NCBI GenBank assembly: GCA_016936155.1
Contig: JAFGPO010000097.1
Coordinates: forward strand, 1-32,185
DNA from: Caldifarciminota bacterium
GTDB taxonomy: Bacteria > Hydrothermota > Tepidihabitantia > SM23-42
Length of the DNA: 32,185 nucleotides
Reading direction: 5' to 3'
Below, in pieces: positions 27,264 to 28,143 of the stretch; the stretch's first letter is position 1; each line of letters begins with the position of its first letter. Under the pieces are notes generated by a model. The model was given only the letters and a program-made list of their open reading frames with translations. It made no database searches and was not told the origin of the DNA. The position numbers and the translations under genes were made by a program.

Positions 27264-27348
27264 ACACCATGGGGTGACCGGATAGCCGCTCCATGTGAGA
27301 GGAAAGTCCGGGCTTCACAGGGCAGGATGCTTCCTAACGGGAAGCCCT

Positions 27349-27634
27349 GCACCTTCTTTGTCATATGAGATTAGGGATGGATTATCGCTATGCATTATGT
27401 TGACATTCTTGAGAAACGGAATAATGAGGAGATCTATATCGGTTGTACTAACAATCTCAAGAGAAGATTTCGAGAACATAATGTCCACGGTATGAGGTGA
27501 GATTTGATTTATTATGAAGCATACAAGGCGCGAGAAGATGCTTACTTACGGGGAAAAAGCTCAAGTATTATGGTCAGGTGCTTGGTCAACTTAAGAGGCG
27601 CATTAAGAATAGCCTTGTATGACAAAGAAGGTGC
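27349..27634 (+). mobile_element. Insertion 1 in rnpB: inverted-arm element enclosing a decayed GIY-YIG ORF
   Basis: Perfect 17-nt arms GCACCTTCTTTGTCATA (27349-27365) and TATGACAAAGAAGGTGC (27618-27634) with a 252-nt interior. Confidence 0.82.
27390..27622 (+). pseudogene. Degenerate GIY-YIG endonuclease (small UPF0213-like type)
   Basis: MHYVDILEKRNNEEIYIGCTNNLKRRFREHNVHGMR, in-frame TGA at 27498, DLIYYEAYKAREDAYLRGK, then -1 frame KLKYYGQVLGQLKRRIKNSLV and TGA at 27620. Confidence 0.82.
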
Positions 27635-27667
27635 GGGGGGAAAGTGCCACAGAGAACAGACCGCCCC

Positions 27668-27838
27668 GCACCTTTGATGTGATATGAGATCAAGCAGGTG
27701 ACTATCAGTGGTGTGCGTAGGGTCTATACAATGCTGGAGTGTTGAAGATAAGGTTAGTCGTACACGCGATCTCAAAACGATCAGCTCTGGAAAAACAATA
27801 AGTGCGTACACTCAAGCGTGTTATCACATCATAGGTGC
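27668..27838 (+). mobile_element. Insertion 2 in rnpB (P12 position): inverted-arm element with eroded interior
   Basis: Arms GCACCTTTGATGTGATA (27668-27684) and TATCACATCATAGGTGC (27822-27838) pair with a single T-T mismatch; 137-nt interior. Confidence 0.75.
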
Positions 27839-28143
27839 GGGGTAAGGGTGAAACGGCGGAGTAAGAGCCCACCGCTCTGAAGGTGACTTCAGAGGCACGG
27901 CAAACCCCATCCGAAGCAAAACCAAGCAGTCCCGTTCAAAGTGGCCCGCTTTCAGGGACAGGTAGGTTGCGCAGAACCTGGTAGTGATATCAGGACAAGA
28001 TAAATGGCTATTTAATACAGAACCCGGCTTATAGGTCACCCCTTTTCAAGCTCCAAGTTCCACTTTCTAAGACCCAAGGAACGGAGTTTACATTGAGGAT
28101 CTGAGGATTTTAGATTGCAGGTATATTCAGCGTTGGTGAGATT

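What the first reader, a model, noticed from the sequence alone, without database searches (positions are those of the whole stretch)
27271..28042. RNase P RNA gene interrupted twice by related hairpin-armed insertions
Seen: conserved RNase P RNA blocks are present in order, and P1 pairs perfectly (27271-27279 with 28034-28042). Two extra segments interrupt it. One lies after the P9-like hairpin GCTTCCTAACGGGAAGC and before GGAAAGTGCCACAGAGAACAGACCGCC. The other sits at the P12 position before GGGTAAGGGTGAAA. Each is bounded by long complementary arms that would form a rigid helix, so core folding can survive. Established: P12 and neighbouring peripheral helices vary in bacterial RNase P RNA, and Rickettsia palindromic elements have been described in RNA genes including rnpB. 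Inference: the insertions are a different, GIY-YIG-linked element class using peripheral helices of a catalytic RNA as a safe harbour. I am not aware of a description of this arrangement, but could not search.
Basis: partly seen in the sequence, partly recalled or inferred. Interest (0 to 1): 0.9.

Follow-up and report, generated by a model that had tools for sequence, protein, structure and literature searches.

The report
Hairpin-armed GIY-YIG elements inside RNase P RNA
In this uncultured bacterium the gene for RNase P RNA, a catalytic RNA that every cell needs, is interrupted twice by decayed copies of a tiny mobile element (a GIY-YIG nuclease gene between two complementary arms), and related elements sit in RNase P RNA, ribosomal RNA and next to tRNA genes in many other bacterial lineages, apparently tolerated because their arms extend existing helices.

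Summary
A class A RNase P RNA (236.6 bits) spans 27270-28047 and carries two arm-bounded inserts.

Insert 1 is a broken GIY-YIG nuclease ORF (one TGA, one frameshift). Insert 2 is a smaller relic of the same element. Relatives in the same family (WOR-3/TA06/Stahlbacteria) carry such inserts in P9, P12 or near P16/P17, or lack them. Some hold intact ORFs, others are ORF-less. Arm sequences change freely but stay complementary (12 of 21 positions with double substitutions).

Among the 80 best-matching relatives fetched from public genomes, 70 have such arms. Seven lie in rnpB (P3, P9 or P12; Falkowbacteria, other Parcubacteria, a Planctomycetota bin), ten in 23S/16S rRNA, and eight abut tRNA genes, some with 8-12 bp duplications. 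All 25 are in sense orientation.

Best explanation: a selfish, IVS-like GIY-YIG element that settles in stems of stable RNAs. Movement by the nuclease and RNase III processing are inferred, not shown. GIY-YIG insertions in CPR rRNA are published; I found no description of the arms or of rnpB as host.

The parts
27270..28047 (+). rnpB, bacterial class A RNase P RNA gene, with two insertions
   Evidence: RF00010, 236.6 bits, E 5.7e-76
27329..27345 (+).
   Evidence: cmscan structure line; sequence
27345..27638 (+). Insert 1: hairpin-armed GIY-YIG element, 294 nt, in P9
   Evidence: arms 20/21 complementary; 78% identical to the element on C16 of the same assembly
27345..27365 (+). left arm of insert 1 (CCCTGCACCTTCTTTGTCATA)
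27618..27638 (+). right arm of insert 1 (TATGACAAAGAAGGTGCGGGG)
27390..27619 (+). GIY-YIG nuclease pseudogene: in-frame TGA where intact relatives have Trp, and a frameshift
   Evidence: matches to the intact relative E 1.6e-16 and 7.7e-4 in two frames
27664..27842 (+). Insert 2: ORF-less decayed relative of the same element, 179 nt, in P12
   Evidence: arms 20/21 complementary; 68-78% identical to other elements over aligned parts
27664..27684 (+). left arm of insert 2 (CCCCGCACCTTTGATGTGATA)
27822..27842 (+). right arm of insert 2 (TATCACATCATAGGTGCGGGG)
25248..27239 (+). TonB-dependent receptor gene upstream (conserved synteny)
   Evidence: PF00593, PF07715; synteny in relatives
28144..29844 (+). 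recJ downstream (conserved synteny)
   Evidence: PF01368, PF17768, PF02272; synteny in relatives

Best explanation
The window carries the single rnpB gene of a WOR-3/TA06-type bacterium, interrupted in P9 and P12 by two decayed copies of one mobile element. The intact element (about 295 bp) is a GIY-YIG nuclease ORF of about 77-86 codons between 20-25 nt complementary arms (core CCCnGCACC...GGTGCnGGG in this family). It settles in peripheral stems of stable RNAs, always in sense, so the arms extend the host helix and the RNA core can still fold. Shown: anatomy, polymorphism, co-varying arms, purifying selection on the ORF among copies at different sites, repeated presence in rnpB, rRNA and tRNA loci of several phyla. 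Inferred: the nuclease starts movement by cutting DNA at target stems, with repair copying the element in; after the ORF dies only the helix is kept, leaving ORF-less inserts and then short GCACC/GGTGC hairpins. Also inferred: the 21-bp arms in the transcript are cut by RNase III without religation, as in 23S intervening sequences, giving a functional RNase P RNA in pieces.
For: rnpB and arms. GIY-YIG relic; intact homologues hit PF01541. Presence/absence at P9, P12 and near P16/P17 among syntenic rnpB genes, including single-contig genomes G004, G005, G018. Arms: 95.5% of cells paired, 12 of 21 pairs with changes on both sides, against 40-54% paired when slid. Selection: pN 0.18-0.31 against pS 0.76-0.92 among intact WOR-3 copies. 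Spread: 70 of 80 public GIY-YIG loci have arms, null maximum 12; 7 in rnpB, 8 in 23S, 2 in 16S, 8 abutting tRNAs, all sense. Duplications of 8-12 bp at tRNA 5' ends. One protein group spans rnpB and tRNA-Ser sites. RNase III and RNase P protein genes present. Nearest solved folds: UPF0213 and structure-specific SLX1.
Against: No transcript or enzyme data. No target duplication is seen at rnpB sites, so the route of entry there may differ from that at tRNAs. Arm complementarity could be kept by recombination between arms rather than by RNA folding. The shuffle control for covariation ignores relatedness. The host is a metagenome bin (86% complete, 6.7% contaminated).
Confidence: 0.82

Rival explanations
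1. Ordinary lineage-specific expansion of P9 and P12, with no mobile element involved.
For: Peripheral helices of RNase P RNA are known to vary (general knowledge); the inserts lie only in peripheral helices.
Against: A GIY-YIG ORF or its relics lie inside; inserts come and go among close relatives at different helices; the same element sits next to tRNA-Ser genes, and relatives in rRNA.
Confidence: 0.04
2. Self-splicing group I or II introns with a GIY-YIG homing gene, removed from the RNA.
For: GIY-YIG proteins are common in group I introns; TIGR01453 (group I intron endonuclease) is hit weakly by 5 of 6 members.
Against: No intron family is hit in the window or in the rnpB loci L123, L139, L141, L148, L161, L178, L185; inserts are about 295 nt or less, mostly ORF plus arms. 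PMC11270868 reports that GIY-YIG insertions in CPR rRNA did not resemble either intron class.
Confidence: 0.05
3. A passive IVS-like hairpin whose GIY-YIG ORF is a passenger or serves the cell (repair nuclease), with spread by ordinary recombination and horizontal transfer of rnpB segments.
For: 23S IVSs behave like this as far as known (PMC4990558); many copies have lost the ORF but persist; no target duplication at rnpB.
Against: ORFs at different sites and in different phyla are under purifying selection; duplications at tRNA sites suggest real insertion events; the element rather than rnpB is shared with tRNA sites.
Confidence: 0.2
4. Assembly or binning artefact joining unrelated sequence into rnpB.
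For: The bin is 6.7% contaminated, and contig C16 has an rnpB that lacks the P3-P12 interval, possibly a repeat collapse.
Against: Independent assemblies, including single-contig genomes G004, G005 and G018, show the same kind of insert with flanking rnpB intact.
Confidence: 0.02

Closest known systems
Intervening sequences (IVS) of bacterial 23S rRNA, e.g. Coxiella burnetii (PMC4990558)
   Same: Selfish insert in a helix of a stable RNA, bounded by complementary termini forming a 20-30 bp stem, with a small ORF that often decays; sporadic across bacteria.
   Different: Here the host is RNase P RNA (also rRNA and tRNA flanks), the ORF is a GIY-YIG nuclease rather than S23p/IVP; RNase III excision is not tested here.
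GIY-YIG-encoding insertion sequences in rRNA genes of CPR bacteria (PMC11270868)
   Same: GIY-YIG ORFs in non-intron insertions of rRNA genes, where most insertions lie at tops or bases of stem-loops; several of the present rRNA loci are CPR and probably belong to that set.
   Different: That paper does not mention RNase P, hairpins or inverted repeats (0 hits) and judged GIY-YIG to be outside spread by homing; here arms, rnpB and tRNA hosts and ORF-less derivatives are added.
Rickettsia palindromic elements (from memory)
   Same: Palindromic elements inserted into genes for RNAs and proteins, tolerated by the product.
   Different: Not known to me to encode a GIY-YIG protein or to have this arm sequence; not compared by sequence here.
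Short tandemly repeated repetitive (STRR) sequences in rnpB of heterocyst-forming cyanobacteria (from memory)
   Same: Extra repeated DNA tolerated in RNase P RNA.
   Different: Short tandem repeats without ORF or long arms.
UPF0213 / SLX1 type GIY-YIG proteins (PDB 1zg2, 1ywl, 6seh)
   Same: Nearest solved relatives of the nuclease; SLX1 acts on DNA structures.
   Different: Not known to me to be encoded within hairpin-armed elements.

Membership tests
Bacterial class A RNase P RNA (RF00010) | covariance model match above the gathering score with ordered core | tested here: met
   236.6 bits against 100, model 1-367
Bacterial class A RNase P RNA (RF00010) | catalytic activity or a mature RNA | not testable with these tools
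   no RNA data
GIY-YIG nuclease superfamily (PF01541) | match of intact homologues to the domain | tested here: met
   6 of 6 members, best E 4e-18
GIY-YIG nuclease superfamily (PF01541) | conserved YVY...YIG, Arg and Glu positions | tested here: met
   invariant Y3 V4 Y5, Y16 G18, R26, E55 in six sequences; the window copy itself is a pseudogene
rRNA-type intervening sequence (IVS) | insert in a helix of a stable RNA with complementary termini | tested here: met
rRNA-type intervening sequence (IVS) | located in rRNA | tested here: not met
   the window copies are in rnpB; relatives are also in 23S/16S
rRNA-type intervening sequence (IVS) | excision by RNase III without ligation | not testable with these tools
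   an RNase III gene is present in the genome
Group I / group II intron | intron core recognised by covariance models | tested here: not met
   no intron family in the window or in the rnpB loci
DNA transposon / MITE | terminal inverted repeats | tested here: met
DNA transposon / MITE | target-site duplication | tested here: inconclusive
   8-12 bp at tRNA-type sites, none evident at rnpB
DNA transposon / MITE | known transposase | tested here: not met
   in the intact copies the arms enclose only the GIY-YIG ORF

The most novel reading that the evidence does not exclude
These elements form one unrecognised superfamily of minimal (about 300 bp) nuclease-plus-hairpin elements specialised for stems of stable RNAs. 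They repeatedly colonise RNase P RNA across phyla and leave a naturally split, still essential ribozyme in their hosts.
Probability: 0.45. Interest if true: 0.88.

Novelty: new variant of a known kind. Interest (0 to 1): 0.74.

Why it matters
It shows a nuclease-coding selfish element living inside the gene of an essential ribozyme and links it to insertions in rRNA and next to tRNAs. That suggests one rule: peripheral stems of stable RNAs are safe harbours for hairpin-armed elements. It gives a source for some of the size variation of P3, P9, P12 and neighbouring stems in RNase P RNA, and makes the question of naturally fragmented RNase P RNA directly testable. It also gives a possible way in which the GIY-YIG insertions of CPR rRNA, judged not to spread by homing, could move.

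Tried and rejected
Pfam scan of the ORF called at 27295-27495 found nothing because it is in the wrong frame; the GIY-YIG frame is broken. The second rnpB on contig C16 was first taken as a possible paralogue; its flanks are 70-79% identical to the window and syntenic, so it is more likely the orthologue of a co-binned relative, with a P3-P12 gap that may be assembly collapse. Group I introns rejected. DNA searches with whole elements found few further copies in relatives; that set (n=26) left out G017-G022. An armed P3 insert in G003 was considered; only a right-arm remnant is visible, so it is not claimed. Target duplications at rnpB sites were looked for and not found. Literature searches for bacterial rnpB with homing endonucleases, palindromic elements or CPR insertions returned nothing on point; only open-licence papers were searched.

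Full report
Observation. cmscan places bacterial class A RNase P RNA over window 27270-28047 (236.6 bits, gathering 100, E 5.7e-76). The alignment shows two long insertions relative to the model. Each is bounded by 21-nt arms with 20 of 21 positions complementary, and both fold well beyond shuffled controls. The whole 772-nt RNA folds with both arms as extended helices and P1 closed.

What the inserts are. Insert 1, read on the + strand, gives HYVDILEKRNNEEIYIGCTNNLKRRFREHNVHGMR*DLIYYEAYKAREDAYLRGK, continuing after a frameshift with KLKYYGQVLGQLKRRIKNSLV. This is a GIY-YIG nuclease with one in-frame TGA, at a position where intact relatives have Trp, and one frameshift. Its nearest intact relatives hit PF01541 (6 of 6 members). 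Insert 2 has no ORF but is 68-78% identical to the other elements over aligned stretches.

The same assembly. Only two further GIY-YIG copies exist in the bin. One begins directly after the 3' end of a tRNA-Ser(CGA) gene on contig C4, with intact ORF and arms. The other lies in a second rnpB on contig C16. C16 is syntenic with the window (77-79% identical over most of the aligned flanks, 70% over another stretch) and is probably the orthologous locus of a co-binned relative; its missing P3-P12 interval may be a collapse between two near-identical elements (inference). So the window rnpB is the only one found that belongs to its own organism.

Relatives. All genomes of the same family were searched, and 121 of 148 genomes of the phylum have an rnpB above cut-off. 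rnpB lies between a TonB receptor gene and recJ in the relatives compared. Segment lengths differ by site: P9 inserts in G000, G012, G017, G018; P12 inserts in G000, G003, G004, G005, G012, G018, G021; a further insert near P16/P17 in G012 and G021; uninterrupted genes in several others, such as G007, G008, G019 and G020. Intact GIY-YIG ORFs lie in P12 of G003 (candidate division TA06 DG_78) and P9 of G017 (Ca. Stahlbacteria); names come. G004, G012, G018 and G021 carry ORF-less derivatives. Uninterrupted P9 or P12 stems in several of these genomes are short hairpins of the type CCCGCACC-n-GGTGCGGG, which resemble bare arms (their reading as scars is inference). A genome of another family, G118, has ORF-less armed inserts in at least P12 and P19, with a possible third at P3.

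tRNA sites in the same lineage. An element begins directly after tRNA-Ser(GCT) in G021, and remnants lie shortly 3' of tRNA-Ser genes in G012 and G004. The G018 copy, between a masked stretch and a gltX-like gene, looks like the same site but cannot be confirmed. In the protein tree the WOR-3 rnpB and tRNA-Ser copies form one group, weakly supported, while the G017 P9 copy falls elsewhere, which suggests separate arrivals.

Arms. Across 16 WOR-3 elements, 95.5% of arm cells pair and 12 of 21 pairs have changes on both sides; sliding the partner by 1-3 columns drops pairing to 40-54%. One of the 16 rows was padded by one base pair at its ends to equal length. This supports a kept helix, in DNA or RNA, and holds also for elements whose ORF is gone. 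Repair of one arm by the other could contribute.

Other phyla. A scan of one genome per species returned 80 kept loci with a related GIY-YIG ORF. Arms scoring at least 11 surround 70 of them; 234 random placements had median 7, 95th percentile 10 and maximum 12. Seven lie in rnpB: P12 in L123 and L178 (Planctomycetota bin), P9 in L141, and P3 in L139, L148, L161 (Falkowbacteria) and L185 (Parcubacteria). L123 and L141 are the G003 and G017 copies again, so five are new hosts. L185 carries similar-armed hairpins in P9 and P12 as well, and L148 a bare arm-like hairpin at P19. Eight lie in 23S and two in 16S rRNA genes, and eight abut the 5' end of tRNA genes. All 25 are sense to the host RNA. 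A Poisson estimate for seven rnpB hits by chance is 4e-16, and 4e-11 for the five that were not in the query (assumes 1.5 Mb genomes). The query alignment was half rnpB copies, so these numbers only exclude chance and are not frequencies. The other loci are mostly intergenic.

Insertion signature. At tRNA-type sites 8-12 bp of the tRNA 5' end are repeated on the far side of the element (L132 GGGGTGATTAGC, L164 GGGCGCTTAGC, L195 GGGCCGGTAGC, L166 GGGCCCGTAG, L128 CCCGTAGC). Mismatched flank pairs give repeats of 8 or more in 0.4% of cases. No such repeat is seen at rnpB sites.

Selection. Intact WOR-3 copies at different sites differ at 76-92% of synonymous but 18-31% of nonsynonymous sites, so the protein has been kept functional along the lineage even though the window copies are dead. 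The nearest solved structures are UPF0213 proteins and the structure-specific nuclease SLX1. A further search found 1776 related proteins.

Mechanism. Most likely the nuclease nicks or cuts DNA at stem-forming target sites and repair copies the element in; the arms let the host RNA fold; once the ORF decays only the helix is maintained. The first step and the fate of the RNA are inferred. RNase III and RNase P protein genes are present, and 23S IVSs with similar stems are excised by RNase III without ligation (PMC4990558, PMC11270868), so a fragmented but active RNase P RNA is the leading guess; it is untested.

Known or new. GIY-YIG insertions that resemble neither intron class are published for CPR rRNA genes, where the authors thought GIY-YIG stood outside spread by homing (PMC11270868). 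That paper does not mention hairpins, inverted repeats or RNase P. I found no paper describing such elements in bacterial rnpB, within an open-licence library. I therefore rate it a new variant of a known kind (IVS-like selfish insertion).

Noticed in passing
25034-25221: Cobalamin riboswitch (59.4 bits) just upstream of the TonB-dependent receptor, suggesting a BtuB-like vitamin B12 transporter; a riboswitch also lies upstream of rnpB in L141.
   Followed up: no
L045 (G000 C16), rnpB on the - strand: A second rnpB in the bin lacks everything between P3 and P12, with one GIY-YIG element at the junction; either assembly collapse or a real recombination between two elements.
   Followed up: partly
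L128, L132, L164, L166, L168, L179, L195: Hairpin-armed GIY-YIG elements abut the 5' ends of tRNA-Ala, -Val and -Lys genes in CPR bacteria; several duplicate the first 8-12 nt of the tRNA.
   Followed up: partly
L215 (G118 C197): rnpB of another WOR-3 family with ORF-less armed inserts (CCCAGCACTTATG..., CCAGCACCTATG...) in P12 and P19 and a possible one at P3; elements may be older than the window's family.
   Followed up: partly
L034 (G002 rnpB, P13/P14 region): Different insertions: pairs of short hairpins (for example CCCTAACGGGATTCACGTCCTTTTTGGGACGGAA), also near P14 in G018 (L040); another repeat family in rnpB.
   Followed up: no
L154 4069-4771: A 23S rRNA gene that carries both a GIY-YIG armed element and a group I intron.
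   Followed up: no
L126, L127, L129: GIY-YIG ORFs with a single in-frame stop each, in otherwise well conserved proteins; decay or recoding not examined.
   Followed up: no
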